DNA of 64,000 nt from assembly GCA_017509255.1 (NCBI GenBank), contig JAFWQA010000009.1, forward strand, positions 1 to 64,000, written 5' to 3'. Shown here piece after piece: positions 325 through 16,729 of this stretch (position 1 is the stretch's first letter; each line of letters opens with the position of its first letter). This DNA is from Clostridia bacterium. GTDB taxonomy: Bacteria > Bacillota > Clostridia > Christensenellales > Aristaeellaceae. Position numbers and translations under genes: made by a program. A model generated the notes under the pieces. That model was not told where the DNA came from. It worked only from the letters and a program-made list of their open reading frames with translations, and did not search any database.

Positions 325-363
325 TCCCAACAACATTAACGACGCTGTGAGGATGTGAAAAAG

Positions 364-927
364 ATGTCTGAGGAAAAGAAGGCGGCAGCAAAGGTTGAGA
401 AGACTGTCAAAAAGGACGCTCAGCCCGGAAAACTGTCCAAGATCCTGAATTGGTTCGCCAAGCTTCCCCAGAGGATCGCGAAGCCCTTCAAGAACATGGT
501 CTATGAACTGAAAAAGGTTACATGGCCGAGCAAGCAGAAGCTGATCACCTATTCAGTCATCGTACTTCTGTTCATGCTGTTCATGGGCGTTGTGATCGGC
601 CTGTTGGATCTGGGCGCTTCCACCGGTGTGCGGATGCTGATCCCGCAGAGCCGTGCCACCGCGACGGCTGTTGAGACCGTGGACGAGGCTGCCGAAGAGG
701 CTGCCGACGCCGTGGAAGAAGCCGCCGAGGCTGCAGCCGATGCCGTCGAGGGCGCTGCCGAAGAGGCTGCCGACGCCGTGGAAGGCGCAGCTGACGCTGC
801 CGCCGAAGCGGTGACCGACGCTGCCGACACCGCTGCCAAGACCGCTGAGGCCGCCGCAGAGGAAGTAAAGGAAACCGTCGAAGAAGCCGTAGAAACGGCA
901 ACGGAAGGAAATTCCGGGGAGAACTGA
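364..927 (+). CDS. secE: Preprotein translocase subunit SecE with long Ala/Glu-rich C-terminal tail
   Basis: SecE is the small clamp subunit of the SecYEG membrane channel. The conserved cytoplasmic segment ELKKVTWPSKQKL is at about residues 48-60, followed by one membrane helix (about 63-85). I chose ATG 364 (187 residues) because the GTGAGGA ribosome binding site at 347-353 is ten bases upstream; the in-frame GTG at 355 is too close. SecE in Gram-positive bacteria is usually 60-80 residues long. Here about 80 further residues follow the helix, built almost only of Ala, Glu, Asp, Val and Thr in a repeated EEAADAVEGAAEAA-like pattern. With the standard single-helix topology the tail would be outside the membrane. 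Only one base separates it from nusG, so the two are surely cotranscribed. Confidence 0.9.
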   Translation: MSEEKKAAAKVEKTVKKDAQPGKLSKILNWFAKLPQRIAKPFKNMVYELKKVTWPSKQKLITYSVIVLLFMLFMGVVIGLLDLGASTGVRMLIPQSRATATAVETVDEAAEEAADAVEEAAEAAADAVEGAAEEAADAVEGAADAAAEAVTDAADTAAKTAEAAAEEVKETVEEAVETATEGNSGEN

Positions 928-3502: not shown

Positions 3503-6500
3503 ATGAGACTGAATCCGGTCATGATCGAGGCACAGGCGGGAGAAGAGGAGTACAACGCCGGAAAGGAATACGAGGAGGCCGGCCTGGTACGGCTGAAGGA
3601 GGAGCTGAGCTCCTCCCGGCGGTACAGCGTGGGCCCGGCGCCCTCGCACATCGTGGCGCTGACCGCGGAGCGGGAGATCAGCTGCAGCTGCGCCGTCTAT
3701 GAGGAGCGGGGCTGCTGCCGGCACATCGCCGCGGTGCAGATGTACCTGGAGCGCACGGGGGAGACGGACATCCTGCTGCAGAGGAACGCCGCCGCGATCA
3801 GCGAAAGCATCCGGCAGCTGGCGGAGAACAGCGTGCCGAGGGAGGCCACGCTGCGGCTGGAGGTCACCCTGGTGATGCCGAAGCTGCCGGGGCAGCCGGT
3901 GCGGCTGAGCCTGCGGACGGGCGAGAAAAAGCTGTACACCGTGCGGAACGTATATCAGTTCATGAACGCCATGGTCCGGCGCGAGGCGACGGTCTTCGGC
4001 AAGGACTTTGAATATCAGCCGCAGTGGATGCGGTACACGGAAAACGATCAGCAGATCCTGAACACAGTGGAAAAGATGACCGCCGCGGCACGGCTGCGCG
4101 GGGAAGAGGATAACGGCATCGAAGCCCGGATGCCGGCGGTGCCCTCCGCCTATGTGGGCGAGCTGCTGGGCCTGCTGCGGGATACGCCGATGAAGTGGAG
4201 GGACGCGGCCGGGAACACCTATCAGAACCAGCGGATCACGGAGACGGAGATCCCCATGCGCTTTGAGCTGCAGCTGCGCCCGCGCGGGCTGCGCGTGACG
4301 GCGCGGATGAACGCCTGGCTGATCCCGATGACGGAGGACTGCGCCTATGTGACCGTGAGGGACCGGATCTACGCAGTACCGGAGATCCAGCGGGAGCTGG
4401 TGCGCACACTGTGGTACAGCCAGTATGACGGGAAGACGGTGGCGGACTACCCGCTGAGCGAGACCGGCACCGTGATCGGCGAGATCCTGCCGTATCTGAA
4501 GCTGCGCGGGGCGGTGGAGCTGGACGAGACGCTGAAGAAGCGGCTGGTGAAGCTGCCGCTGAAGGCGGAGATCTATCTGGACAAGGCGGAATGGAGCATC
4601 CTGGCCCGGGTGTGCTTCCGCTACGGGGAGACGGAGCTGAATCCCTTCGGCGCGGTGCGGGAAAAGATCGCGCTGGGCAAGGGGGAAAAGCTGCTGCTGC
4701 GCGATTCCGAGGCGGAGCAGACCGTGCTGGAGATCCTGGCGAACGCCGGGTTCCATGTGACGCGGGAGGACATCCGCCTGAGCGGGCAGGACGCCATATT
4801 TGAATTTGTGAACAGCGGCGTGGCGAGGCTGCGCGAGCACTGCGAGATCTTCGCCAGCCGCGACTTCCAGAAGCTGACGCCCCGGCGGCCCACGCTGAGC
4901 GGCAGCGTACGCATGGAGAACGGACACCTGGAGATAGCGCTGAAGACGGACGGCGAGCCGACACCGGAGATCCTGGGCATCATGGAGGCGCTGAGCCGGC
5001 GCAGGCGGTATTACCGCCTGAAGGACGGCAGCTTCCTGGACCTGACGGACATGGAGGAGTGGCAGGAGCCGGCGGAGCGCATCTGGGAGGCCGCGCTGCG
5101 GGACGGGAACAGCCTGAACCGGGACCGTATCATCCTGCGCGGATACCGCGCCGGGTATCTGGTGAACATGCTGGAGGGCCGGAGCGTGGACATCCGCGTG
5201 GAGGACAGCGTGCTGGAGGTGACGGACAGCCTGCGCGGTGCCGGCCGGAGCATTCCCGCGCCCGCCGTGGCCGTGCCCCTGCGGGAGTACCAGCAGCGGG
5301 GCTACGAATGGCTGTACAACCTGGACCGGCTGCACATGGGCGGCGTGCTGGCGGACGCCATGGGCCTGGGCAAGACGGCCCAGGTGATCTCCCTGCTGCA
5401 GGCGACAAGGGAGCGCGGGCGCACGAGCCTGGTGATCGCCCCGACGAGCCTGACCTACAACTGGCTGAGCGAGATCAACCGCTTCGCGCCGGACCTGAGC
5501 GCCGCCGTGATCGGCGGCACCGCGGCCCAGCGGGCCGGGCTGATCCGCCACGTGACGGAGCACGGGGACGTGGACGTGATGATCACCAGCTATCCGCTGA
5601 TCCGGAGGGATATCTCCCTGCTGAAGGACCATCTCTTCCGCTTCGTGATCCTGGACGAGGCGCAGTACATCAAGAACGCCGGCAGCGTGGCGGCGGTGAC
5701 CGTGAAGCAGCTGCAGGCGGACACGCGGCTGGCGCTGACCGGCACGCCCATGGAGAACGGCGTGGGCGAGCTGTGGAGCATATTCGACTTCGTGCTGCCG
5801 GGCTATCTGCCCGGGTACACCGCCTTCCTGCGGCGGTACCAGGACGGGGAGGACAGCGACGACCTGAGAAAGCGGATCCAGCCCTTCCTGTTCCGCAGGC
5901 TGAAGCAGGACGTGCTGGAGGAGCTGCCGGACAAAAACGAGGTCGTGCTGAAGGCACAGATGACCGCCGAGCAGGAGAAGGTATACACCGCCGCGATGGA
6001 GCGGCTGCGCCCGCGGGTGAACCGGATCATGGACGAGAAGGGACTCGGGAAGGGCCGGATGGAGGTGCTCAGCGCGATCACCGAGCTGAGGCAGGTGTGC
6101 TGCCATCCATCGCTGGTGCTGGACGGGTATACCGGGGGCAGCGGCAAGGAGGAGCTGCTGATGGAGATCCTGCCGGAGCTGATCGCCGACGGGAGAAGGA
6201 TGCTGATCTTCAGCCAGTTCACCTCCATGCTGAAGCTGCTGCGGCCGCGGCTGGAGGAGAACGGTATACGCACCATGTATCTGGACGGGAATACGCCCGC
6301 CACCGAGCGGCTGGACCTGACGGAGCAGTTCAACCGCGGGGACACGCCGGTATTCTTGATCAGCCTGAAGGCCGGCGGGGCCGGGCTGAACCTGACCGGG
6401 GCGGACGTGGTGATCCACTACGACCCGTGGTGGAACCCGGCGACGGAGGACCAGGCGACCGACCGCGCGCACCGCATCGGGCAGACGAAAAAGGTGGACG

Positions 6501-6649
6501 TGATCCGGCTGGTGACCGGCGAGAGCATCGAGGAGCAGGTGGCGGAGCTCGGCAAGCGGAAAAAGGCGCTGTTCGACCGCCTGATCACCCCGGGCGAGGC
6601 CGACCTGACGGCCCTGAGCGAGCAGGATATCCGCGCGCTGTTTGAGTGA
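3503..6649 (+). CDS. SWIM zinc finger/SNF2-family helicase
   Basis: This 1048-residue protein should be a DNA-dependent ATPase that remodels or translocates on nucleic acid in the cytoplasm. A SWIM zinc finger (CSC at 61-63 and CCRH at 71-74) lies at the N-terminus. A long middle region follows, and the C-terminal half is a complete SNF2 motor: LREYQQRGYEWL, Walker A DAMGLGKT near 615-622, Walker B box ILDEAQ near 714, LTGTPMENGVGELWSIFDF, and motif VI ATDRAHRIGQTKKVDVIRL. The ATG at 3503 has AAGGAG seven bases upstream. This SWIM-SNF2 architecture is common as a stand-alone gene in Clostridia. No methyltransferase, nuclease or other defence partner is adjacent, so a general chromosome role is more likely. 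Confidence 0.93.
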   Translation: MRLNPVMIEAQAGEEEYNAGKEYEEAGLVRLKEELSSSRRYSVGPAPSHIVALTAEREISCSCAVYEERGCCRHIAAVQMYLERTGETDILLQRNAAAISESIRQLAENSVPREATLRLEVTLVMPKLPGQPVRLSLRTGEKKLYTVRNVYQFMNAMVRREATVFGKDFEYQPQWMRYTENDQQILNTVEKMTAAARLRGEEDNGIEARMPAVPSAYVGELLGLLRDTPMKWRDAAGNTYQNQRITETEIPMRFELQLRPRGLRVTARMNAWLIPMTEDCAYVTVRDRIYAVPEIQRELVRTLWYSQYDGKTVADYPLSETGTVIGEILPYLKLRGAVELDETLKKRLVKLPLKAEIYLDKAEWSILARVCFRYGETELNPFGAVREKIALGKGEKLLLRDSEAEQTVLEILANAGFHVTREDIRLSGQDAIFEFVNSGVARLREHCEIFASRDFQKLTPRRPTLSGSVRMENGHLEIALKTDGEPTPEILGIMEALSRRRRYYRLKDGSFLDLTDMEEWQEPAERIWEAALRDGNSLNRDRIILRGYRAGYLVNMLEGRSVDIRVEDSVLEVTDSLRGAGRSIPAPAVAVPLREYQQRGYEWLYNLDRLHMGGVLADAMGLGKTAQVISLLQATRERGRTSLVIAPTSLTYNWLSEINRFAPDLSAAVIGGTAAQRAGLIRHVTEHGDVDVMITSYPLIRRDISLLKDHLFRFVILDEAQYIKNAGSVAAVTVKQLQADTRLALTGTPMENGVGELWSIFDFVLPGYLPGYTAFLRRYQDGEDSDDLRKRIQPFLFRRLKQDVLEELPDKNEVVLKAQMTAEQEKVYTAAMERLRPRVNRIMDEKGLGKGRMEVLSAITELRQVCCHPSLVLDGYTGGSGKEELLMEILPELIADGRRMLIFSQFTSMLKLLRPRLEENGIRTMYLDGNTPATERLDLTEQFNRGDTPVFLISLKAGGAGLNLTGADVVIHYDPWWNPATEDQATDRAHRIGQTKKVDVIRLVTGESIEEQVAELGKRKKALFDRLITPGEADLTALSEQDIRALFE

Positions 6650-6680
6650 AAAGGGAATTGTAACAGAACAGGGCGTCAAC

Positions 6681-6709
6681 TTGCAAACAGGCCCCCGATA
6701 TGATATATT
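6681..6709 (+). promoter_or_regulatory. Promoter of the CotH-VTC cluster
   Basis: TTGCAA (6681-6686), a 17-base spacer and TATATT (6704-6709), with TG one base before the -10, form a good sigma-A type promoter. It lies in the 105-bp gap ahead of the CotH-kinase gene. Confidence 0.65.
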
Positions 6710-6754
6710 ATTCGGGATCGGTGCCCGGAAGAAACGGCGAAAGGAGGGGAAGCC

Positions 6755-9700
6755 ATGGACCGGCAAAGAAGACAGGAAAACCCGCAGGGACGGCGCACGG
6801 CTTCCCGCGCGGCGAAAACGCGCCGCTGGAGAAAGAGCCTGAACTTCCTGATCATGGGCGCGTTCATTTTCGTGATCGCGGTGATCGTTCTGGCGACCCC
6901 GAAGGAGCCGCTGGGCCACGCGACCTACACCAACGAGACCGCATCCGGCCTGACCGGGACGGGCACCCGCCTGGCAGACGCCTACAAGGGGCTGGTGATC
7001 AGCGAGATCATGAGCGCCAACGGCGCCGCCGTGACCGACGAGAACGGCAAATACAGCGACTGGCTGGAGATCTGGAACAGCTCGGAGAACGACATGCGCC
7101 TGGACGGCGTGGGCCTGAGCGACCGCAGCGACCGAATCCGCTTCCTTTTCCCGGACATCACGCTGCGCGCGAACGGGCGCATCCTGGTTTTCTGCACCAA
7201 CACGAACAAGAATACCCCCGGCGAAGCCTTTCACGCCAAGCTGAAGCTGAGCAGCGTGGGGGAGACCGTATATCTGTTTGACCCGAACGCCTATCTGATC
7301 GACAGCTGCAAATATCCCATCCTGAGCACGGATGAGAGCTATGCCCTGACGGACGAGGGATATCAGATCGTGCCGTGGTTCAGCCCCGGCTTCCCGAACA
7401 CGGAGGAGGGCCACCGTGCTTACCGCGAGAGCGTGATGGTGACCAACGGCTCCATCGTGATCAACGAGGTGATGGCCGACCCGCTGACCGGCCTGCGCGA
7501 CGCCGACGACGAGCTGAGCGACTGGATCGAGCTGTACAACACGACCGGCAGCAACATCCTCCTGGACAACTACGCCCTAAGCGACAACGAGGGCAAGCCC
7601 CTGAAGTGGCGCTTCCCGAAGGGCGACATGATCCCGGCGCACGGCTATTACCTGGTGTTCTGCTCCGGCAAGGACAGGGTGGACACCGCGAGCAAGGTGC
7701 CGCATACCAATTTCCGTCTGAGCGCGGAAGCGGAAACGATCATCCTGGCGGACAGCAGCGGACGCGTGGTGGACCGCGTGATGATCGACAACCTGCCCGA
7801 GGACTGCAGCTTCGGCCGGAACGAGAACGGAGCGCTGCAGGTATTCCAGACGGCGACGCCCCTGATGCCGAACAACGAGAGCGGCTTCCGGCAGATGGAC
7901 CAGCAGCTGATGGCGCTGAACCGCACCGGCGTGTATATCAGCGAGGTGCTGGCCAGCAACGACTCCATCGTCACCTTTCCGAATGCCGGCTTTACCGACT
8001 GGATCGAGCTGTACAACTCCGGCAGCGAGTCCGTGGACCTGACCGGCTACGGCCTGAGCGACCGGCTGACCCGGGGGCGGAAATGGCAGTTCCCGTACGG
8101 AACGTTCATCGCGCCCGGGGAACACAAGGTGATCCTGTGCGACGGCACCGGGACCGTGACCAACACCGGCGAGCTGCACGCAGGCATCAAGCTCAGTCGG
8201 CAGGGAGGGGAAACAGTCTGCCTGACGGACCCGGAGGGAAGGATCCTGGACAAGATGATCCTGCCGGAGCAGCGGACAAATGTTTCATACGGCCGGACGT
8301 ACGGGATGTCGGGCTTTTTTTATTATGATACGCCCACGCCCTTCCAGACGAACGGGCCGGGCTTCATCGGCTTCACTCCGACGCCCAGCTTCACCACGGA
8401 GGGCGGACTGCACTACAGCACGGTGTACACCGAGATCCGCGTGCCGGAGGGCACGCAGGTGTACTACACCACGGACGGCTCCACGCCCACCGAGGCCTCC
8501 ACGCCCTACAACGGAGAGAGGCTGGAGCTGAAATTCACCGGCGTGCTGCGGGCGAGGGCCTACGCCGCGGACGGGCGGAAGCCCAGCGAGACCGCCACGG
8601 CGACCTACCTGATCAACGTGTATCACACGCTGCCGGTGTTCAGCGTGGTGACCGACCCGGACATCCTGTGGAACGAGGAAAACGGTATGCTGGTGACGGG
8701 CAAAAACGTGGTGAAGGAGCCCGGCGTGCTGCCCTTCCAGAACACGGTGTACCGCAGAGTGAAGAACTCCGGCGTCAAATTCCCGGTGAACGTGGAAATG
8801 TACGACACGGACGGGACGAAGGTGCTGAACCAGCTGGCGGAATTCGGCCTGATGGGCGACTACAGCCTGGACATGCCGCAGAAGAGCATGAAATTCCGCG
8901 CCAAGAGCCTGTACGGAAACAAGACCTTCGCCGCGGCGCTCTTCCCGGACCGCCCGTACACCGAATACAAGAGCTTTGTGCTGCGGAACAGTGGCAACGA
9001 CTGCATGTGGACCCGCCTGCTGGACGGCTTTGAGAGCCGGCTGCTGGACTACTACGGCAGCACCGTGATCCACCAGGCCTGGCGGCCGAGCGTGGTATAC
9101 CTGAACGGCGCGTACTGGGGGCACATGAACCTGCGCGAGCGGGTGGACCGCTTCTTTGTGGCGCAGTTCGAGGGGCTGAGCCTGGATGAGGCCGACCAGA
9201 TGACGATCCTGCAGGCCAGCGGCGCCGCGAAGTACGGCAGCAACAAGGAATACAAGGCGATGATCAAGAAGATCAAGGCCGGCGACCCCGCGAAGAACCC
9301 GGCTGACCTGCAGTATATCCTGGACAACGTGGACGTGGACAACTTCCTCGAATACATGGCGCTGGAGACCTTTATGGGCAACAGCGACATCGGCAACACG
9401 CGCTACTACCGGCTGAAGAAGCCCGGCAGCAAGTGGAAATGGATCTGGTACGACGCGGACTACGGGCTGTACTTGTCCACCTTTGACAGCCCGAAGAGCT
9501 ATACCAAGAAGACCGGCATGGGCCAGCAGAAGATCGACAACACGATCTTCCTGAAGCTGCTGAGCGTGCCGGAATACAAGGCGAAATACCTGGAAAAGCT
9601 GGGGAGCATCTTCAAAAAGTTCACCACGAACAACATGCTGGAGGTGCTGGAGCCGCTGGTGGATCAGATCAAGCCGGAAATGACGCTGCACTGGGCCCGC

Positions 9701-9922
9701 TGGGGCGAGGAGAACGACCAGTTCGTGATCAGCGAGGTGCCCGTGACGATCGACGGCGCCTACCGCTACTGGGAGGCGCGCGTGAACCGCCTGCGGAACA
9801 CGCTGAAGGTGCGGCCGTACCGGCTGTGGCAGTACATCCAGCAGGGCTATGACCTGACCGACGCCCAGATGAACGAATACTTCGGGCCGCGGCCGGAGCT
9901 GCTGCCGGACGCTAAGCTGTAA
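6755..9922 (+). CDS. Membrane-anchored protein with three lamin-tail domains and a CotH kinase domain
   Basis: This is a 1055-residue surface protein. A very basic N-terminus is followed by one membrane helix (about 30-48), with the rest outside the cell. Three lamin-tail-like repeats start near residues 79, 235 and 393, each with a (V/I)-x-E-(I/V)-(M/L) start, D-W-(L/I)-E-(L/I) and L-S-D. A chitobiase/hexosaminidase C-terminal type beta domain (VYYTTDGSTPT) follows near 545-625. A CotH-type domain (about 629-960) then carries KSMKFRAKSLYG, YWGHMNLRERVD, ETFMGNSDIGN and WIWYDADYGLYL. CotH proteins are atypical secreted kinases best known from spore coats. The ATG has GGAGGGG seven bases upstream. 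It heads a run of six genes and, with the next two, forms a trio (CotH, DUF4956, VTC) that recurs in other bacteria. Confidence 0.88.
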   Translation: MDRQRRQENPQGRRTASRAAKTRRWRKSLNFLIMGAFIFVIAVIVLATPKEPLGHATYTNETASGLTGTGTRLADAYKGLVISEIMSANGAAVTDENGKYSDWLEIWNSSENDMRLDGVGLSDRSDRIRFLFPDITLRANGRILVFCTNTNKNTPGEAFHAKLKLSSVGETVYLFDPNAYLIDSCKYPILSTDESYALTDEGYQIVPWFSPGFPNTEEGHRAYRESVMVTNGSIVINEVMADPLTGLRDADDELSDWIELYNTTGSNILLDNYALSDNEGKPLKWRFPKGDMIPAHGYYLVFCSGKDRVDTASKVPHTNFRLSAEAETIILADSSGRVVDRVMIDNLPEDCSFGRNENGALQVFQTATPLMPNNESGFRQMDQQLMALNRTGVYISEVLASNDSIVTFPNAGFTDWIELYNSGSESVDLTGYGLSDRLTRGRKWQFPYGTFIAPGEHKVILCDGTGTVTNTGELHAGIKLSRQGGETVCLTDPEGRILDKMILPEQRTNVSYGRTYGMSGFFYYDTPTPFQTNGPGFIGFTPTPSFTTEGGLHYSTVYTEIRVPEGTQVYYTTDGSTPTEASTPYNGERLELKFTGVLRARAYAADGRKPSETATATYLINVYHTLPVFSVVTDPDILWNEENGMLVTGKNVVKEPGVLPFQNTVYRRVKNSGVKFPVNVEMYDTDGTKVLNQLAEFGLMGDYSLDMPQKSMKFRAKSLYGNKTFAAALFPDRPYTEYKSFVLRNSGNDCMWTRLLDGFESRLLDYYGSTVIHQAWRPSVVYLNGAYWGHMNLRERVDRFFVAQFEGLSLDEADQMTILQASGAAKYGSNKEYKAMIKKIKAGDPAKNPADLQYILDNVDVDNFLEYMALETFMGNSDIGNTRYYRLKKPGSKWKWIWYDADYGLYLSTFDSPKSYTKKTGMGQQKIDNTIFLKLLSVPEYKAKYLEKLGSIFKKFTTNNMLEVLEPLVDQIKPEMTLHWARWGEENDQFVISEVPVTIDGAYRYWEARVNRLRNTLKVRPYRLWQYIQQGYDLTDAQMNEYFGPRPELLPDAKL

Positions 9923-9958
9923 AAAATCCGAAAGAGATACAACAAGGAGGAACCGAAA

Positions 9959-10657
9959 ATGACGGAGACCACCGGCGCATCGTCCCTGCTCGGCGGAAAC
10001 GTGAGCCTGAGCGACTATTTCACCAACCAGTTTGTGACCCTGACCCCCTGGAAGATCCTGATCGGCCTGATCCTCGGGCTGGCGGTGGGCCTGGTGATCG
10101 CTTTTGTGTACAAGCGCTGCTACCGCGGCGTGCTGTACAGCCCCACCTTTGCCATGACGCTGATGATGCTGACGCTGATCACGACCCCCGTAGTCATGTG
10201 CATCAAGAGCGACATCGCTCTGAGCATGGGCATGGTCGGCGCGCTGAGCATCGTGCGTTTCCGGACCGCCGTGAAGGACCCGATGGACACGGCCTACATG
10301 TTCTGGGCGCTGACGATGGGCATCCTGCTGGGCGCGGAGCTTTTTGTCCACGCGCTGGTGGTGGTGCTGGGCATCGGCGTGATCCTTTTCCTGATGACCT
10401 TTGTGCGGCTGAAGAATCCGAACGCCTACCTGCTGGTGGTGCACTATGACGACTATGCCGAGCAGGACATCACCCAGCTGCTGCGCCGCACCGTGAAGCA
10501 GCGCAGGCTGCGCAGCAAGACCGTGACCCGCGCGGGCGCCGAGATGACCGTGGAGGTGCGGCTGGACGGCAAGCAGGACCTGGTGGCCGCCGTGCTGAAC
10601 ATCGAGGGCGTGCACGACGCCACGCTGGTAGCCTGCCAGACGGAAGCCGGCGCCTGA
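9959..10657 (+). CDS. DUF4956 family membrane protein
   Basis: This 232-residue protein starts at ATG 9959 after an AAGGAGG site. Four hydrophobic segments lie in the N-terminal two thirds (about 32-52, 62-80, 83-100 and 118-145). The conserved block MGMVGALSIVRFRTAVKDPMDTAYMFWALTMGILLGA is typical of DUF4956. A soluble cytoplasmic ferredoxin-like tail of about 80 residues ends in AAVLNIEGVHDATLV. The family has no known activity but is repeatedly found beside VTC-domain and CotH genes, as here. It probably acts at the membrane with its neighbours in making or handling a polymer; that role is inference. Confidence 0.85.
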   Translation: MTETTGASSLLGGNVSLSDYFTNQFVTLTPWKILIGLILGLAVGLVIAFVYKRCYRGVLYSPTFAMTLMMLTLITTPVVMCIKSDIALSMGMVGALSIVRFRTAVKDPMDTAYMFWALTMGILLGAELFVHALVVVLGIGVILFLMTFVRLKNPNAYLLVVHYDDYAEQDITQLLRRTVKQRRLRSKTVTRAGAEMTVEVRLDGKQDLVAAVLNIEGVHDATLVACQTEAGA

Positions 10658-10723
10658 CGGAGGGAGCCGCCCCCGGAGGGGGAACGGACCTGAAGCGAAT
10701 GAAAACGGAAAGGAGGGACGGGT

Positions 10724-11434
10724 ATGGCGCAAAGCAGTCTGCCGCTGCGGCATGAGCTGAAATTCCTGATCAACGAAATGCAGTACTACGTGCTCAGCGG
10801 CGTGCTGGATTCCGTGCTGCAACGGGATCCGAACGGGGACGAGTTCAACGAGTATCATATCCGTTCCCTGTATTTTGACACGGCGTTCAACACGGCGCTC
10901 TTTGACAAGATCGACGGCGTGCCGAACCGCGACAAGTACCGTATCCGCATCTACAACCTGAGCGACAGGGTCATCAAGATGGAATGCAAGACCAAGGTCG
11001 GGAGCCTGATCAGCAAGAGGAGCGTATCCATCCCGAGACTGCTGGCCGAGCAGCTGATCGCCGGGGACCCGGCCGGGCTGGAAACGACGGAAAGCGGACT
11101 GCTGAACGACGTGTACCGCGAGATGACCGTGAACCTGCTGCACCCGGTGGTGCTGGTGGACTACGTGCGCGAGGCCTACCTGCATCCGGCGGAGGAGGTG
11201 CGCATCACCTTTGACAAGCAGCTGCGGACCGGCCTGAGAAGCACGGACCTGTTCAACCCTTACGTGCCGACCGTGCCGCCCTTCGACAACAACGAGATCA
11301 TCCTGGAGGTCAAATACAACCGCGTACTGCCGCCCTATATCCGCGACATCCTGAACACCTACTGCCAGGGCGCCCTGAACAGCGCCGTGAGCAAGTATAC
11401 CTGGTGCCGCCGGTTCGAGGACCTGGAAGCGTAA
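10724..11434 (+). CDS. VTC-domain protein, polyphosphate polymerase-like
   Basis: This 236-residue protein lacks a signal peptide and membrane helices. VTC domains, first known from the yeast vacuolar transporter chaperone, form a tunnel lined with basic residues and can make polyphosphate from ATP. The family pattern is visible: LRHELKFLI at the start, SLYFDT, KYRIRIYN (the paired Arg), KMECKTK, and EVKYNRVLPPYIRDIL near the end. The ATG 10724 follows AAGGAGGGA. It lies between the DUF4956 gene and an AAA+ gene with only 21 bp to the latter. Bacterial members are often annotated as polyphosphate polymerase domain proteins; activity here is not proved. Confidence 0.85.
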   Translation: MAQSSLPLRHELKFLINEMQYYVLSGVLDSVLQRDPNGDEFNEYHIRSLYFDTAFNTALFDKIDGVPNRDKYRIRIYNLSDRVIKMECKTKVGSLISKRSVSIPRLLAEQLIAGDPAGLETTESGLLNDVYREMTVNLLHPVVLVDYVREAYLHPAEEVRITFDKQLRTGLRSTDLFNPYVPTVPPFDNNEIILEVKYNRVLPPYIRDILNTYCQGALNSAVSKYTWCRRFEDLEA

Positions 11435-11455
11435 AAGCGGAGGAGAGGAAGAGAC

Positions 11456-13363
11456 ATGGAAGCATTGATTCCGAAATGGCACCGGGAGCTGGAGCTTTTC
11501 AGCGCCATCAAGCCCCTGCTGATCTTTGAGGGAAACGTGCTGGATCAGTACCGCTATCCTGTGGACGGGAGCCTGAAGCAGGACTCCATCGTGCCGCTGA
11601 GCCGGTACCTGCACACCTTTTTCACGGACAACGGCTACGACCAGGTGATGTTCTACAGCAACCTGGTCGGCTTTATGAATCCCTATGACACGGCCATGAC
11701 GAGCCGCTATGCCGCCATGACCGGCACGAAGATCACCAGCGGGGCGATCCAGGCCGAGTTCAAGGGGAACGACGCCAACACCGCGCCGAACGTGATCCGC
11801 CGCGCCATGTGCCAGCGGGACTACGCCACAGTGACCGTGCTGGAGATGGCGAGCCACTACATCACCACGCCCGAGCGCATGGACCAGATGGACGTGAACA
11901 GCTTCAACATCCTGCTGCAGAGCGCGCTGAGCTCCGCCTGGGTGCGCACGCCGCACGGCAAGAAGCAGAACCTGCTGGTGCTGCTGGTGAACAAGCTGAA
12001 CGACCTGCCCGCGTGGTTCTATCTGAACACGCCGGTGTGCAAGATCCTGGAGCTGGACGCGCCGGACCGCGAGGAGCGCAAGCGCCTGATGACCGGCACG
12101 AATTTTGCCTCCTTCTTCTCCGGCACGGTATACCGCAGGGATATGCCCTACTACAACGAGCATCCGGACGAGCTGGAGCGGATCAAGGAGCGCTTCGTGG
12201 GACTGACGGAGGGCCTGACCTTTACCGAGCTGGACGAGATGCGCCTGCTGTGCAAGCAGGAGGAAACGCGGATCCGCGACCTGTGCACGGTGGTGGACCT
12301 GTACAAATACGGCATCAAGGAAAACCCGTGGAACACGCTGAGCATGGAGAGCCTGAAGACCGCGAAGCAGGACTTCGAGAAGCGGATCAAGGGCCAGGAC
12401 GCCGCGCTGGAGCGCACGCTGGACGTGGTCAAGCGCGCCGTGACCGGCATGAACGGCATCAACTCCTCCTCCACGGGCAAGCCCAAGGGCGTGCTCTTCT
12501 TTGCCGGACCGACGGGCACCGGCAAGACCGAGACCGCCAAGGCGCTGGCGGAAAAGCTGTTCGGGGACGAGCGGACCTGCGTGCGCTTCGACATGAGCGA
12601 GTACGGCCAGAGCCACAGCGACCAGAAGCTGATGGGAGCGCCTCCCGGATACGTGGGCTACGAGGCCGGCGGCCAGCTGACCAACGCCGTGAAGGAGAAC
12701 CCCTTCTGCATCCTGCTGTTTGACGAGATCGAGAAGGCCCATTCCTCCATACTGGACAAGTTCCTGCAGATCCTGGAGGACGGCCGCATGACCGACGGGC
12801 AGGGCAAGACGGTGTATTTCTCCGAAACGATCATCATCTTTACCAGCAACCTGGGCATCTATGTGAAGGATGCCTTCGGAAACCGCGAGCCGAACGTGAC
12901 CATGGACATGGAATACGGCGAGGTGGCCACCCGCGTGCGCAGCGCCATTGAGGACTACTTCAAGCTGGAGCTGGGCCGCCCGGAGATCCTGAACCGGATC
13001 GGCGAGAACATCGTGGTGTTCGACTACATCCGCAAGGAAGCGGCCGACCTGATCCTGAAGAGCCAGGTGAACAAGATCATCGCCAACATGCGGGAGAAGC
13101 GGGACATCAGCATCCGCATCGAGGACTACGCCTATTCCAGCCTGAAGGAGGCCGCGACCTTTGACCTGTCCAACGGCGGCCGCGGCATCGGGAACCAGGT
13201 GGAGAGCCTGCTGATCAACCCGCTGAGCCGCTGGATGTTTGACAACGGCGTGACCGAAAAGGCCCGCCTGGTGATCGAAGGATTCGAGACGTCCGCCAAC
13301 CCGCCCGCGCTGCGCTGCCGCAGGGAAGAGGACGGGGAAGCCGAGGTGAAGAAAGATGAGTGA
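11456..13363 (+). CDS. Hsp100/Clp-like AAA+ ATPase with a degenerate first domain
   Basis: This is a 635-residue cytoplasmic protein. The C-terminal half is a complete Clp/Hsp100 second-domain type AAA+ module: Walker A GPTGTGKT near 351, GAPPGYVGYEAGGQLT (pore-loop region), Walker B LLFDEIEK near 420, sensor IIIFTSNLG near 460, RPEILNRIGENIVVF with the arginine finger near 508, then a D2-small domain. The first 310 residues look like an AAA-type fold without Walker motifs and contain no Clp N-domain or ClpP-docking loop that I can recognise. Its place right after the VTC gene, and an 8-bp overlap with the next gene, suggest it works with this cluster rather than in general protein quality control. 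Confidence 0.85.
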   Translation: MEALIPKWHRELELFSAIKPLLIFEGNVLDQYRYPVDGSLKQDSIVPLSRYLHTFFTDNGYDQVMFYSNLVGFMNPYDTAMTSRYAAMTGTKITSGAIQAEFKGNDANTAPNVIRRAMCQRDYATVTVLEMASHYITTPERMDQMDVNSFNILLQSALSSAWVRTPHGKKQNLLVLLVNKLNDLPAWFYLNTPVCKILELDAPDREERKRLMTGTNFASFFSGTVYRRDMPYYNEHPDELERIKERFVGLTEGLTFTELDEMRLLCKQEETRIRDLCTVVDLYKYGIKENPWNTLSMESLKTAKQDFEKRIKGQDAALERTLDVVKRAVTGMNGINSSSTGKPKGVLFFAGPTGTGKTETAKALAEKLFGDERTCVRFDMSEYGQSHSDQKLMGAPPGYVGYEAGGQLTNAVKENPFCILLFDEIEKAHSSILDKFLQILEDGRMTDGQGKTVYFSETIIIFTSNLGIYVKDAFGNREPNVTMDMEYGEVATRVRSAIEDYFKLELGRPEILNRIGENIVVFDYIRKEAADLILKSQVNKIIANMREKRDISIRIEDYAYSSLKEAATFDLSNGGRGIGNQVESLLINPLSRWMFDNGVTEKARLVIEGFETSANPPALRCRREEDGEAEVKKDE

Positions 13364-14114
13364 TATCAAAAATCCCGCGGGAGCCAATGAGAGCGAGATC
13401 GCCAGGAGACTGAGGGAGATCGTGCCGGACCTGTGGAGCGGCCTGGGCGCCGGGATCCCGCTGTTCGCCGGCGAGCAGGAGGAGGACGGGGACGAGGACG
13501 CCTATGTGGCCTCCCAGACGCGGCCGGCCGCAGCAGCCGCACCCGCCGCTGCCGCCGCGGCTCCGAGGGCCGCGGAAAAGAAGCCCGAAAAGACGGCCGA
13601 GAAGAAAAAGCCGGCTTTGGACAGCCTGTGGAAGGCCGCGGACGAGACCGTGGACTGGACGGACGCGCTGGGCCACGAGCGCCCGACGGACGGACTGACC
13701 GGGCAGAAGCTGTGGAGCTTTTATCACAGCATGGCGGAGCAGGTGCTTGCCGGGGACGTGAGCGCCTATGTGAAGGTGCTGACCGAAACGAACCCGCTGG
13801 GGGACCTGACCGACTTTGTGAGCGGCATGGTGATCCGCACGCCGGACAGCGACCGGCTGGAATGCGAATTCGAGTGCCGGGAAGAGTGGCTGAAGGAGGA
13901 CGCCCGGAGGTATCTGGGCGGCATGAGCCTGCGCGTGGCGCGGGACCTTTTCGCCGCGCTGCCCGTGAGCGAGGTGACCGTGCGCGGAACGCGGAACGGC
14001 GGGACGAACCTGGACGTGACCTACAGGAGGGAGCAGCTGCTGAAGCGGAACTTCTCCTTCCTGGATCCCGCCGGCTTCGCGGAGAAATGCGGCGGCAGGA
14101 TCGAAACAGACTGA
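13356..14114 (+). CDS. Unrecognised protein coupled to the AAA+ ATPase
   Basis: I do not recognise a family for this 252-residue protein. An acidic N-terminal segment (about 37-52) leads into an Ala/Pro-rich and then Lys/Glu-rich linker (about 55-90). A folded C-terminal region begins near WKAADETVDWTDALG. It has no signal peptide or membrane helix. The ATG overlaps the end of the AAA+ gene by eight bases, so translation is probably coupled. It could be a substrate adaptor or partner of the ATPase; this is inference from gene order only. Confidence 0.8.
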   Translation: MSDIKNPAGANESEIARRLREIVPDLWSGLGAGIPLFAGEQEEDGDEDAYVASQTRPAAAAAPAAAAAAPRAAEKKPEKTAEKKKPALDSLWKAADETVDWTDALGHERPTDGLTGQKLWSFYHSMAEQVLAGDVSAYVKVLTETNPLGDLTDFVSGMVIRTPDSDRLECEFECREEWLKEDARRYLGGMSLRVARDLFAALPVSEVTVRGTRNGGTNLDVTYRREQLLKRNFSFLDPAGFAEKCGGRIETD

Positions 14115-14143
14115 GCAGCGGGGACGCCCGGAGGGAAGCAGAC

Positions 14144-15337
14144 ATGACGCATCGGAGGATCCTGATGACAACAGCGGCAGCAGTTTTGCTGCTGCTTCTT
14201 TCCGTATGCTGCGCCGCGGCGGAAACGGCGGAGGAGATCACCGCCGGCTGCAGCTTCACGAACAACGGAAAGACCAAGGACTGCAGCACGCTGACGGACG
14301 GGGACTACTCGACCTATCTGCCCTTTAAGGAAAAGAAGGGCGAGCTGCTGATCAAAACCGGGGAGCCGGCCGCGGGACTGTATGTGAAGCTGTACAACAA
14401 CGACAATAAGCCGCTGAGCTACGAGGTGCAGGTGCCCGGGGAGAACGGGGAATGGGTGACCGCCGCGCAGGGCGGCGCGCTGCTGGTGCACTGGCACGCG
14501 CTGGAGAACCCCGTGACGGAAATGAAGATCGTGTGCACGAGCAAGGAGCGGCTGCGCATCGCTGAGCTGAAGGTATACGGCCCGGGGGACAAGCCCGCGG
14601 AGGTGCAGGTGTGGACCGAGCTGGAAAAGTGCGACCTGATGCTGCTGAGCACGCATCCGGACGACGAGCTGCTCTGGTTCGGCGGGCTGCTGCCGACCTA
14701 TGCCGGAGACCGGGGGCTGCGCGTGCAGCTGACCGTGATGGTGCCCACCGGGACGCTGCGGAGGCTGGAGCTGCTGGACGCCATATGGCACTGCGGGGTG
14801 ACCGCCTATCCGGACTTCCTGTTCTTTGTGGACAACCGGGGGAAATCCGTGGCGAACCAGTATGAACGCTGGAGGGGAAAGAGCCGGGTGATCGGCCGGG
14901 TGGTGGAGAGCATACGGCACCATCAGCCGGAGGTGATCGTGACCCACGGGGAGAAGGGCGAATACGGCCACATGGCCCACAGGACCACGGCGGACGCGGC
15001 GAAGAACGCGGTGAAGGTGTGCGGGAACGCCGCCAAATACAAGGAATCCGCCAAGAAATACGGCGCGTGGCAGGTGAAGAAGCTCTACCTGCACGAGTAC
15101 GCGAAGAACCCGGTGATCTGCGACTGGGACGCGCCGCTGAAGGCCTTCGGCGGGAAGACGGGCTTTGACGTGGCGGAGGAGGCCTTCCGCTTCCACGCCA
15201 GCCAGGTGAAAAGAGACTGGGAGTTTTCCCGGCGCGGGGAGCACGACAACGCCGCGTTCGGCCTGTATTACTCTGAGGTCGGCACGGACACCGGGACCGG
15301 GGACCTGATGGAGCACATTGAGACCGCGGAGCCCTGA
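14144..15337 (+). CDS. Exported PIG-L family deacetylase
   Basis: This 397-residue protein should be a zinc-dependent N-acetyl-sugar deacetylase acting outside the cytoplasm. A signal peptide (residues 1-26, ending in CCAAAE) is followed by a beta-rich discoidin-like domain of about 125 residues. The PIG-L/LmbE domain starts near 160 with the metal motif STHPDDE near 170 and continues with VTHGEKGEYGHMAHR, whose His residues complete the site. The ATG at 14144 has GGAGGG upstream. Although the frame is open back to 13433, the upstream part overlaps the previous gene and lacks a start signal. It is the last gene before a strong terminator and probably modifies a surface glycan. Confidence 0.88.
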   Translation: MTHRRILMTTAAAVLLLLLSVCCAAAETAEEITAGCSFTNNGKTKDCSTLTDGDYSTYLPFKEKKGELLIKTGEPAAGLYVKLYNNDNKPLSYEVQVPGENGEWVTAAQGGALLVHWHALENPVTEMKIVCTSKERLRIAELKVYGPGDKPAEVQVWTELEKCDLMLLSTHPDDELLWFGGLLPTYAGDRGLRVQLTVMVPTGTLRRLELLDAIWHCGVTAYPDFLFFVDNRGKSVANQYERWRGKSRVIGRVVESIRHHQPEVIVTHGEKGEYGHMAHRTTADAAKNAVKVCGNAAKYKESAKKYGAWQVKKLYLHEYAKNPVICDWDAPLKAFGGKTGFDVAEEAFRFHASQVKRDWEFSRRGEHDNAAFGLYYSEVGTDTGTGDLMEHIETAEP

Positions 15338-15379
15338 ACGGATACCGGTTTTTTTCAGAACGGGCATCGGAACGCGCAA

Positions 15380-15420
15380 CAGAACATATTTCAGAACAAA
15401 TTTCAGAACAAATTTCAGAA
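15380..15420. repeat. Three-and-a-half 12-bp direct repeats
   Basis: CAGAACATATTT, CAGAACAAATTT, CAGAACAAATTT and a partial CAGAA lie head to tail between the PIG-L stop and the terminator. No function is evident; slippage-generated spacer is the simplest view. Confidence 0.7.
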
Positions 15421-15424
15421 GAAA

Positions 15425-15455
15425 CGGCTGCCGGATCTCCGGCGGCTGTTTTTTT
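15425..15455 (+). terminator. Intrinsic terminator of the CotH-VTC cluster
   Basis: GGCTGCCGG (15426-15434) pairs with CCGGCGGCT (15439-15447) with G-T wobbles, tetraloop ATCT, followed after one base by TTTTTTT at 15449-15455. Confidence 0.85.
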
Positions 15456-15515
15456 GCTGTTTCTTTGTTAAAAAATATATTAACTTAATGGGAATGAGAT
15501 TGAACTGCCAGTTAA

Positions 15516-15542
15516 TTTACGAAATGGTGGGATTGTGATAAT
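15516..15542 (+). promoter_or_regulatory. Extended -10 promoter of the sugar ABC importer
   Basis: An AT-rich stretch holds TGTGATAAT (15534-15542), an extended -10 element, with a weak -35 TTTACG 15 bases upstream. The same TGTGATAAT precedes the tRNA-Thr gene. No operator palindrome is evident. Confidence 0.5.
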
Positions 15543-15607
15543 ATTTACACATCAAACCGGAGCAGCTCGAGAGTTCCGGCAAACAAAAGCAAAGGAGAGT
15601 AAAACCA

Positions 15608-16729
15608 ATGAAGAAAATCCTGGCTCTCATTCTTACCCTGAGTCTTCTGTGCGGCATCGCCGTGTGCGCGACCGCGGAAGACAAAATCAAGATCGGCGTC
15701 TCCATCTGGAGCTCCACCGACACCCTCGGCAGCGAATGCAAGCGCCTGATCGACGCCGCCGCAGACGCGCTGGACGTGGAAGTGATGTACGTTGACCAGG
15801 GCCACATCTCCGAAAAGGTGACCGCCAGCGCGGAAACCCTGGCGATGGCTGACTGCGACGGCATCGTGATCTGCAACTCCGCTTCCGCCGAAATGGGCAG
15901 CGTGATCAAGACCTGCGAGGAGAACGAGGTGTACGTTGCACAGTTCTTCCGCATCATCAACCAGGACGACAACCCCGATGAATACGCCCAGGCCTGCGCT
16001 TCCAAGTACTACGTCGGTGCCGTGCACGAATCCGAATTCGACAACGGCAAGGAGCTCGTGCGCATCCTGACCGAAGAAAAGAACTGCCGCAAGATCGCCC
16101 TGGAAGCCTGGGAACCCGGCGACGCGACCTTCCTGGGCCGCTGGTCCGGCTACAAGGCCGGTCTGGAAGCCTTCAACGCGGCTCATCCGGACGATCAGGC
16201 CGTGCTGCTTGATCCCCAGTACGGCGGCACCACGACCGACACCGGCCGTGCCACCGCGGAAGCCATCATTGACGCGAACCCCGACATCGACGCCCTGATC
16301 GTCGCGGGCGGCGGCGGAGACACCCTGGTGGGCGCCCTGGCCGGCATCGAAGGCAAGGGCCTGACCGGCAAGATCGCCGTGGTCTCCACCGACTTCCTGG
16401 CTGACCTGGATGCCCAGCTGGCCTCCGGCGGCATGGCTGCCGAGTCCGGCGGACACTACGCCGATCCCTTCTTCGCCTTCCTGATGGTCTACAACGCCAT
16501 CAAGGGCAACTACGAAGTCTCCACCGAAGGCTTCTATGACATGGTATTCCCCTACATGTTCGTTGCTTCCTCCGAGGACTACACCGCCTACGCGGAGTAC
16601 TTCACCGGCGACCAGCTGCCCTACACCGCGGACGAGATCAAGGCGCTGGCTGAGCTGAGCTACGACGACCTGGCTGCCGCGTGCGCCCAGCTGTCCGTTG
16701 CGGACGTTGTGGCCCGCCACGCCAAATAA
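15608..16729 (+). CDS. Sugar-type ABC importer substrate-binding protein
   Basis: This 373-residue exported protein has a signal peptide of about 23 residues ending in CATAED; no lipobox is seen, so anchoring is unclear. It belongs to the periplasmic-binding-protein-like I fold (ribose/galactose type): IKIGVSIWSSTDTLGSECKR at the start, DCDGIVICNSAS, and DANPDIDALIVAGGGGDTLVGAL in the second lobe. It captures a small ligand for the permeases and ATPase encoded downstream. A strong hairpin in the 87-bp spacer after it may favour its higher expression. The ligand cannot be read from the sequence. Confidence 0.9.
   Translation: MKKILALILTLSLLCGIAVCATAEDKIKIGVSIWSSTDTLGSECKRLIDAAADALDVEVMYVDQGHISEKVTASAETLAMADCDGIVICNSASAEMGSVIKTCEENEVYVAQFFRIINQDDNPDEYAQACASKYYVGAVHESEFDNGKELVRILTEEKNCRKIALEAWEPGDATFLGRWSGYKAGLEAFNAAHPDDQAVLLDPQYGGTTTDTGRATAEAIIDANPDIDALIVAGGGGDTLVGALAGIEGKGLTGKIAVVSTDFLADLDAQLASGGMAAESGGHYADPFFAFLMVYNAIKGNYEVSTEGFYDMVFPYMFVASSEDYTAYAEYFTGDQLPYTADEIKALAELSYDDLAAACAQLSVADVVARHAK

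What the first reader, a model, noticed from the sequence alone, without database searches (positions are those of the whole stretch)
6755..15337. Six-gene cluster joining CotH kinase, DUF4956, VTC polymerase, Hsp100-like ATPase and exported PIG-L deacetylase
Gene spacings are short, one promoter (6681) and one terminator (15425) bracket the run, and all genes share a strand. The CotH-DUF4956-VTC trio is known to recur. The AAA+ ATPase, an unrecognised partner and an exported deacetylase are added here. Together they could make, phosphorylate or modify a surface polymer (polyphosphate or glycan) with ATPase-driven control. The combined function is not described to my knowledge.
Basis: partly seen in the sequence, partly recalled or inferred. 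Interest (0 to 1): 0.75.

Follow-up and report, generated by a model that had tools for sequence, protein, structure and literature searches.

The report
Polyphosphate/CotH operon with captured unfoldase
A gut bacterium carries a known three-gene set for a surface kinase and a likely polyphosphate-making membrane machine, and in its genus a separate protein-remodelling motor with its own partner protein has come to lie in the same likely operon.

Summary
(1) CotH-DUF4956-VTC is a known trio. VTC keeps twelve strongly conserved charged positions of yeast Vtc4, and CotH keeps the catalytic Asp pair. Here the trio lies outside any pel locus. (2) The AAA+ gene and the 'unrecognised partner' (g5) are a translationally coupled pair. 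In this genus 37 of 38 relatives with both AAA and VTC have AAA downstream of VTC on one contig. In 7 genomes of other genera the pair stands without the trio. Trio-linked AAAs lie on one side of one tree branch (97). (3) PIG-L is an accessory: the slot between VTC and AAA holds CapA (18 of 37), PIG-L (5), an inverted MucBP gene (1) or nothing (13). (4) The 14 most distant AAA loci lie with kinase, FHA, radical-SAM and PP2C genes, and in 5 of them a g5 domain. I read AAA-g5 as a reduced survivor of that system, captured once by the trio operon. That the motor acts on VTC-DUF4956 is inference: the upstream SNF2 gene is about as conserved. No structure could be predicted.

The parts
6681..6709 (+). 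only sigma-70-like promoter match on the + strand in 6500-15700 (9 of 12, TG before the second hexamer)
   Evidence: count near chance
6755..9922 (+). CotH-type kinase: one hydrophobic segment (aa 29-47), three LTD domains, CHB_HEX_C/Fn3-like domain, C-terminal CotH kinase domain (aa 701-1020); catalytic Asp pair at 878 and 900
9959..10657 (+). DUF4956 membrane protein with 4-5 hydrophobic segments and a C-terminal soluble part
10724..11434 (+). VTC polyphosphate-polymerase domain, no SPX domain; twelve conserved charged Vtc4 positions kept
11456..13363 (+). AAA+ ATPase with a ClpB-D2-like module (about aa 297-606); first ~240 residues match no Pfam, NCBIfam or PDB entry; Walker A/B, GYVGY pore loop, sensor 1, Arg finger and sensor 2 intact
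13356..14114 (+). g5: N-terminal D-L-W motif, Ala/Pro/Lys-rich linker, conserved ~160-aa C-terminal domain; overlaps AAA by 8 nt; homologous to the C-terminus of DUF4236 proteins in distant clusters
14144..15337 (+). exported PIG-L-type deacetylase with a hydrophobic N-terminal signal segment; accessory
15418..15455 (+). terminator-like hairpin with T-run (17 pairs)

Best explanation
This is a modular envelope operon. Core: VTC (cytosolic) makes polyphosphate from ATP; DUF4956 is its membrane partner and perhaps the translocation path; CotH, anchored in the membrane with its kinase domain outside, phosphorylates surface proteins or glycans, perhaps using what the first two export. A slot for exported hydrolases (CapA-type or PIG-L deacetylase) acts on the same surface material. 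At the base of this genus a separate two-gene module joined the 3' end: an Hsp100-like AAA+ remodeller and its adaptor g5, made together by translational coupling. g5 delivers a client through its C-terminal domain and the AAA ring remodels it; the likely client is the VTC-DUF4956 complex or a regulator of it. Shown here: the genes, conserved motifs, overlap of AAA and g5, single origin of the linkage, the interchangeable slot, homology to the kinase/FHA/PP2C-linked AAA. Inferred from known families: polyphosphate synthesis, kinase activity, remodelling activity, topology. Speculative: translocation through DUF4956, g5 as adaptor, and the motor acting on VTC-DUF4956.
For: VTC profile matches yeast Vtc4 (E 2e-20). 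Of 62 charged Vtc4 positions in the aligned stretches, twelve fall on strongly conserved identical columns: R196, K200, R264, R266, E279, K281, K294, R361, R373, E426, K428, K458, which are R9, K13, R73, R75, E87, K89, K98, R149, R160, E195, K197, K224 here, invariant in 18 rows. The CotH profile matches B. cereus CotH (5jd9, E 1.6e-08); D224 and D247 of that chain, spaced like the D228/D251 named in PMC7821199, align with D878 and D900, invariant in 11 rows. VTC and DUF4956 are direct neighbours in 19 of 20 further VTC loci that I picked (exception L078, one ORF between). AAA and g5 overlap in 33 of 35 pairs called. In the genus AAA lies 3' of VTC on one contig in 37 of 38; trio-linked AAAs form one side of one branch, 97. 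CapA starts within 5 nt of the VTC stop in 13 of 14 called loci. No IGF/IGL tripeptide between sensor 1 and the Arg finger, so a remodeller rather than a ClpP partner.
Against: AAA-g5 stands without the trio in 7 genomes of other genera, and one (G116, 89% complete) has no VTC orthologue at E 1e-60, so the pair does not need the trio. Many genomes with a VTC orthologue lack AAA-g5 (113 of 200 against 47 of 200). Within the genus the presumably unrelated SNF2 gene is upstream of CotH (within 1.5 kb) in 27 of 29 usable loci, so conserved order may be inherited position only. In L042 an inverted MucBP gene splits the trio from AAA-g5. Other charged Vtc4 positions, for example R253, K300 and K455, are not kept as such. 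In S. intermedius all four accessory-gene mutants still made Pel, and no change is reported for the VTC-type mutant SIR_1593 (PMC12345266, section 20).
Confidence: 0.45

Rival explanations
1. Positional hitchhiking: AAA-g5 landed once behind the trio, is co-transcribed or merely adjacent, and works on unrelated clients; the trio works alone as it does elsewhere.
For: Single origin of the linkage; AAA-g5 without the trio in 7 other-genus genomes; the SNF2 neighbour is about equally conserved (27 of 29); MucBP interrupts the run in L042.
Against: Short VTC-to-AAA gaps (10-119 nt between aligned ends in the 13 relatives with an empty slot); CapA sits in the slot in the same direction, within 5 nt of VTC in 13 of 14 called loci, though PIG-L in the slot is less tight; 3' neighbours of g5 vary while the VTC-AAA link holds.
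Confidence: 0.4
2. The operon serves an exopolysaccharide: the trio adjusts a Pel-like or other glycan, CapA/PIG-L modify it, and the AAA regulates the synthase.
For: The trio lies beside pelDEADAFG in streptococci and clostridia, with a bifidobacterial variant (PMC7112168); deleting the DUF4956-like or CotH-like gene changes Pel level and aggregation in S. intermedius (PMC12345266); PIG-L and CapA in the slot.
Against: PelF marker PF11997 is absent from the own genome (74% complete) and from 43 of 45 genomes of the genus, 0 of 13 of the best ones; no synthase gene in the operon; in other genera the trio's neighbours look like housekeeping genes (by eye, no domain search).
Confidence: 0.1
3. 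AAA-g5 is a remnant of a defence or stress-signalling system and keeps that role, unrelated to the envelope.
For: Distant homologues lie with a Ser/Thr kinase, Zn-ribbon/FHA, PP2C, radical SAM and, in 9 of 14 loci, a helicase-nuclease that matches PADLOC candidate PDC-S37 in the one tested (L166).
Against: PADLOC has no match for g5, and its matches to AAA cover the AAA core only; none of the helicase, kinase or PP2C partners is beside the pair in the window.
Confidence: 0.15

Closest known systems
CotH-PPP(VTC)-DUF4956(-DUF4832) accessory genes of Gram-positive pel loci (PMC7112168; S. intermedius SIR_1592-1594, PMC12345266)
   Same: same three families, contiguous (that SIR_1592 is the DUF4956 protein is my inference from its description)
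   Different: no pel genes here; long CotH with LTD domains; AAA-g5 and the CapA/PIG-L slot added. PMC12345266 reports not finding the three-gene synteny outside the Pel locus; here it is outside
Eukaryotic VTC complex (Vtc4; 3g3q, 8i6v)
   Same: polymerase domain and twelve conserved charged positions
   Different: no SPX domain, no fused TM segment; a separate DUF4956 membrane protein; other charged positions differ
ClpB/Hsp104 and ClpV D2 rings
   Same: D2 with Walker A/B, GYVGY pore loop, Arg finger, sensor 2
   Different: only one recognisable AAA domain, an unmatched N-terminal region, no ClpP loop found
Kinase-FHA-PP2C-Hsp100 phospho-switch of type VI secretion (PpkA-Fha-PppA-ClpV; recalled, from no call)
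   Same: the distant AAA cluster has the same four activities
   Different: no secretion genes noticed (not searched for); the window keeps only AAA and g5

Membership tests
VTC polyphosphate polymerase | PF09359 match over cut-off | tested here: met
   119.8 bits against 23
VTC polyphosphate polymerase | charged tunnel/catalytic residues of Vtc4 (which of them are catalytic is recalled, from no call) | tested here: inconclusive
   twelve strongly conserved charged positions identical and invariant in 18 rows; others such as R253, K300, K455 not kept as such
VTC polyphosphate polymerase | polyphosphate made from ATP | not testable with these tools
   needs an assay
Eukaryotic VTC4 | N-terminal SPX domain | tested here: not met
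   236 aa, VTC domain only
CotH kinase | PF08757 and catalytic Asp pair | tested here: met
   100.4 bits against 23.8; D878/D900 align with the pair in 5jd9
CotH spore-coat kinase (B. subtilis) | CotB/CotG substrates in a spore coat | not tested
   no search made
ClpB/Hsp100 | D2 motifs | tested here: met
ClpB/Hsp100 | full ClpB architecture (NCBIfam TIGR03346 cut-off) | tested here: not met
   255.3 bits against 1232.1
ClpP-partner ATPase | IGF/L docking loop in D2 | tested here: not met
   no IGF/IGL between sensor 1 and the Arg finger; only LGI at 466 inside sensor 1
Pel-linked trio | pelDEADAFG beside the trio | tested here: not met
   none among the neighbouring ORFs; PF11997 0 of 1, 2 of 45 in genus; own genome 74% complete
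PIG-L deacetylase | PF02585 over cut-off | tested here: met
   41.3 against 28.2; MshB/Mca/BshB1 models far below cut-off
Kinase/FHA/PP2C/AAA cluster | kinase, FHA and PP2C genes beside the AAA | tested here: not met
   absent beside it here; present in distant loci

The most novel reading that the evidence does not exclude
An Hsp100-type motor with its own adaptor, descended from a kinase-FHA-PP2C signalling cluster that my two literature searches did not find described, has been recruited to drive or gate a bacterial VTC-DUF4956 polyphosphate export machine that feeds an extracellular CotH kinase.
Probability: 0.2. Interest if true: 0.75.

Novelty: new variant of a known kind. Interest (0 to 1): 0.47.

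Why it matters
It frees the CotH-DUF4956-VTC trio from its published tie to Pel, so its function can be studied without that polysaccharide. It gives a natural test of whether bacterial VTC enzymes export polyphosphate and whether a CotH kinase uses it. It also places an unnamed domain (g5) and an unmatched AAA N-terminal region in a wider kinase-FHA-PP2C-AAA cluster seen in several Firmicutes families and, in part, in a Chloroflexi MAG.

Tried and rejected
Six genes as one unit: rejected, because PIG-L is in the VTC-AAA slot in only 5 of 37 relatives, a close homologue (53-60%) lies elsewhere in 9 more genomes, and this genome holds 5 copies of the family at E 1e-60. Pel context: rejected (by eye). 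A known defence system: PADLOC gives AAA-core hits only for AAA and nothing for g5. PDB relatives by profile: nothing usable for the AAA N-terminal region, g5 or DUF4956 (a designed protein at E 0.15). Exact -35/-10 consensus: 0 in the window. Partners elsewhere: PP2C_2 and FHA families 0 in the own, 74% complete genome, but present in 4 of 4 near-complete relatives, so their absence here may be incompleteness. Literature: searches on the trio listed no paper on an AAA-g5 addition as far as their titles and the passages I read show; the wider cluster was looked for only in searches (one paper with DUF4236, on Salmonella; two unrelated papers); searches were for CotH and for the genus. Only CC-licensed PMC papers are held. 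PMC2879425 (passages) lists VTC, 'tubulin/FtsZ' and CotH genes side by side in a C. perfringens locus, perhaps the same trio. Gene calls outside the window are my own ORF heuristic and miss genes: in L041 it missed the FHA, radical-SAM and PP2C genes, found, and in the window it missed g5. Some 'noG5' labels are such misses.
Full report
Observation. The window is part of contig C29 of a 2.5 Mb, 62-contig, 74% complete genome. Related loci come mostly from uncultured Clostridia, many of them MAGs from ruminant gut (record titles); I recall this group as Aristaeellaceae, from no call. Six + strand genes run from 6755 to 15337 with gaps of 36, 66, 21, -8 and 29 nt. The 6681 promoter match and the terminator exist, but promoter-like counts are near chance.

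The trio. The VTC profile finds yeast Vtc4 in the PDB. Of 62 charged Vtc4 positions in the aligned stretches, twelve fall on strongly conserved identical columns, and these are invariant in 18 bacterial sequences that share as little as 22% identity with the window protein. Others, such as R253, K300 and K455, are not kept as such. The CotH domain profile finds B. cereus CotH (5jd9). D224 and D247 of that chain, spaced like D228/D251 of PMC7821199 (passages read), align with D878 and D900 here. DUF4956 has four to five hydrophobic segments. I picked 20 further VTC loci (18 outside the genus, one second copy in G013 and one in the own genome). In 19 of 20 VTC and DUF4956 are direct neighbours; in L078 the VTC frame has a stop and one ORF lies between. 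CotH is present in 9 of 20 (L076, L080, L082, L084, L086, L088, L089, L090, L093). So VTC-DUF4956 looks like the minimal pair and CotH a frequent third. VTC itself is common: 145 of 200 genomes.

Literature on the trio. PMC7112168 (passages) describes CotH, polyphosphate polymerase, DUF4956 and DUF4832 genes contiguous with pel in streptococci and clostridia, and a variant in bifidobacteria. PMC12345266 (passages and section 20) deleted each accessory gene in S. intermedius: Pel was still made in all; SIR_1592 (which I take for DUF4956) made more and SIR_1594 (CotH) less, and both aggregated less; no change is reported for SIR_1593 (polymerase). The authors found no such synteny outside the Pel locus. 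Here the trio is outside pel: PF11997 is absent from this genome and from 43 of 45 genomes of the genus, the own included. In the other-genus loci that I read by eye its neighbours look like housekeeping genes; I ran no domain search on them.

AAA and g5. The AAA has an intact ClpB-D2-like module: Walker A GPTGTGKT, pore loop GYVGY, Walker B, sensor 1, Arg finger, sensor 2. Its first ~240 residues match nothing in Pfam, NCBIfam or the PDB. g5 has no match over a cut-off in Pfam, and none in NCBIfam, PADLOC or the PDB; PHROGs was not searched. In 200 genomes (199 relatives and the own) the AAA is found in 47 and g5 in 45. 44 of the 45 g5 genomes have the AAA; the exception is G051. AAA without g5: two cases at contig ends (G003, G025) and G091, whose 43%-identical AAA lies with kinase and PP2C genes (L040). 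The two genes overlap in 33 of 35 pairs that my gene caller placed, the window not among them; in the window the overlap is 8 nt.

Linkage. Of 44 same-genus relatives, 38 have the AAA and the same 38 have the VTC orthologue. The six lacking both (G017, G027, G031, G033, G040, G043) are 54-89% complete, so joint absence may be a gap. In 37 of the 38 the two are on one contig and one strand. The slot between them holds CapA in 18, PIG-L in 5, an inverted MucBP gene in 1 and nothing in 13; in the 38th (G022) the two lie on different contigs. In the window PIG-L is after g5 instead. Seven genomes of other genera carry AAA-g5 with no trio hit in the 13-20 kb fetched around it. Six of them have a VTC orthologue 78-88% identical on another contig; the seventh, G116, has none at E 1e-60. 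The AAA tree puts all 30 trio-linked rows on one side of one branch (97), one change against 24.8 in shuffles; 34 further rows have g5 but no trio nearby (84 rows, rows under 400 aa dropped, quick method). L123 (G022) falls just outside that set; its trio is on another contig. Control: SNF2 is also kept upstream of CotH in 27 of 29 loci with at least 1.6 kb of sequence there (loci with less were not counted). So the linkage arose once and was kept; that selection keeps it is not shown.

Wider cluster. Of 148 confirmed loci for the AAA N-terminal region the best 80 were kept. The 14 most distant (L161-L174; Lachnospiraceae, Oscillospiraceae, Erysipelotrichaceae, a Chloroflexi MAG and others, by record title) hold, by similarity clusters anywhere in the locus: kinase 14 of 14, MSGPK coiled coil 13, Zn-ribbon/FHA 14, radical SAM 13, PP2C 12, helicase-nuclease 9, g5 domain 5 (several loci are cut by contig ends; the Chloroflexi locus lacks MSGPK, radical SAM and PP2C). 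Domain names come from L166. In the five, the g5 domain follows a DUF4236 domain (Pfam on L166 only; three others printed share the N-terminal sequence); profile E 7e-44 to 3e-34 and pairwise E 2e-16, 28%. The AAA N-terminal region is rare in the class sample: 5 of 391 genomes including the own. In one genome of the same genus (G002, contig C2) a second AAA lies with FHA, a PP2C match below the curated cut-off, a radical-SAM-like gene (by sequence start) and two kinases. So AAA-g5 here looks like a reduced form of a phospho-regulated Hsp100 module. The direction (reduction rather than expansion) is inferred from the breadth of the larger form; the tree is rooted at the midpoint for drawing only.

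Mechanism. Most likely the operon couples polyphosphate synthesis (VTC), a membrane path (DUF4956), an outside kinase (CotH) and exported enzymes (CapA/PIG-L), with AAA-g5 as a cytosolic remodeller made in step. The last link is the weakest; hitchhiking is almost as likely.

Noticed in passing
L166:227-13685, L170, L174 and other loci L161-L174: Recurring cluster: helicase-nuclease (matches PADLOC candidate PDC-S37 in L166), Ser/Thr kinase, MSGPK coiled coil, Zn-ribbon/FHA, radical SAM, ClpB-like AAA, PP2C, DUF4236+g5; resembles a phospho-switch with an Hsp100 motor; not found in two paper searches.
   Followed up: partly
L041 (G002 contig C2, 44 kb): A same-genus two-contig genome carries a second copy of the AAA (57%) with FHA, radical-SAM-like, PP2C-like and two kinase genes on its small contig.
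   Followed up: partly
window 355-927: SecE-like protein (secE-nusG-rplK-rplA order, by eye) with a ~100-aa repetitive Ala/Glu/Asp-rich C-terminal tail.
   Followed up: no
L094:9716-10357 (G051): A lone g5-domain gene with no AAA beside it, the only g5 genome of 45 without the AAA.
   Followed up: no
L042:6735-9848: An inverted MucBP-repeat surface protein gene inserted between VTC and AAA-g5.
   Followed up: partly
window 14144-15337 and G000 C31, C46, C11, C4: Five exported-type PIG-L paralogues in one genome; a varied deacetylase family in this genus.
   Followed up: partly
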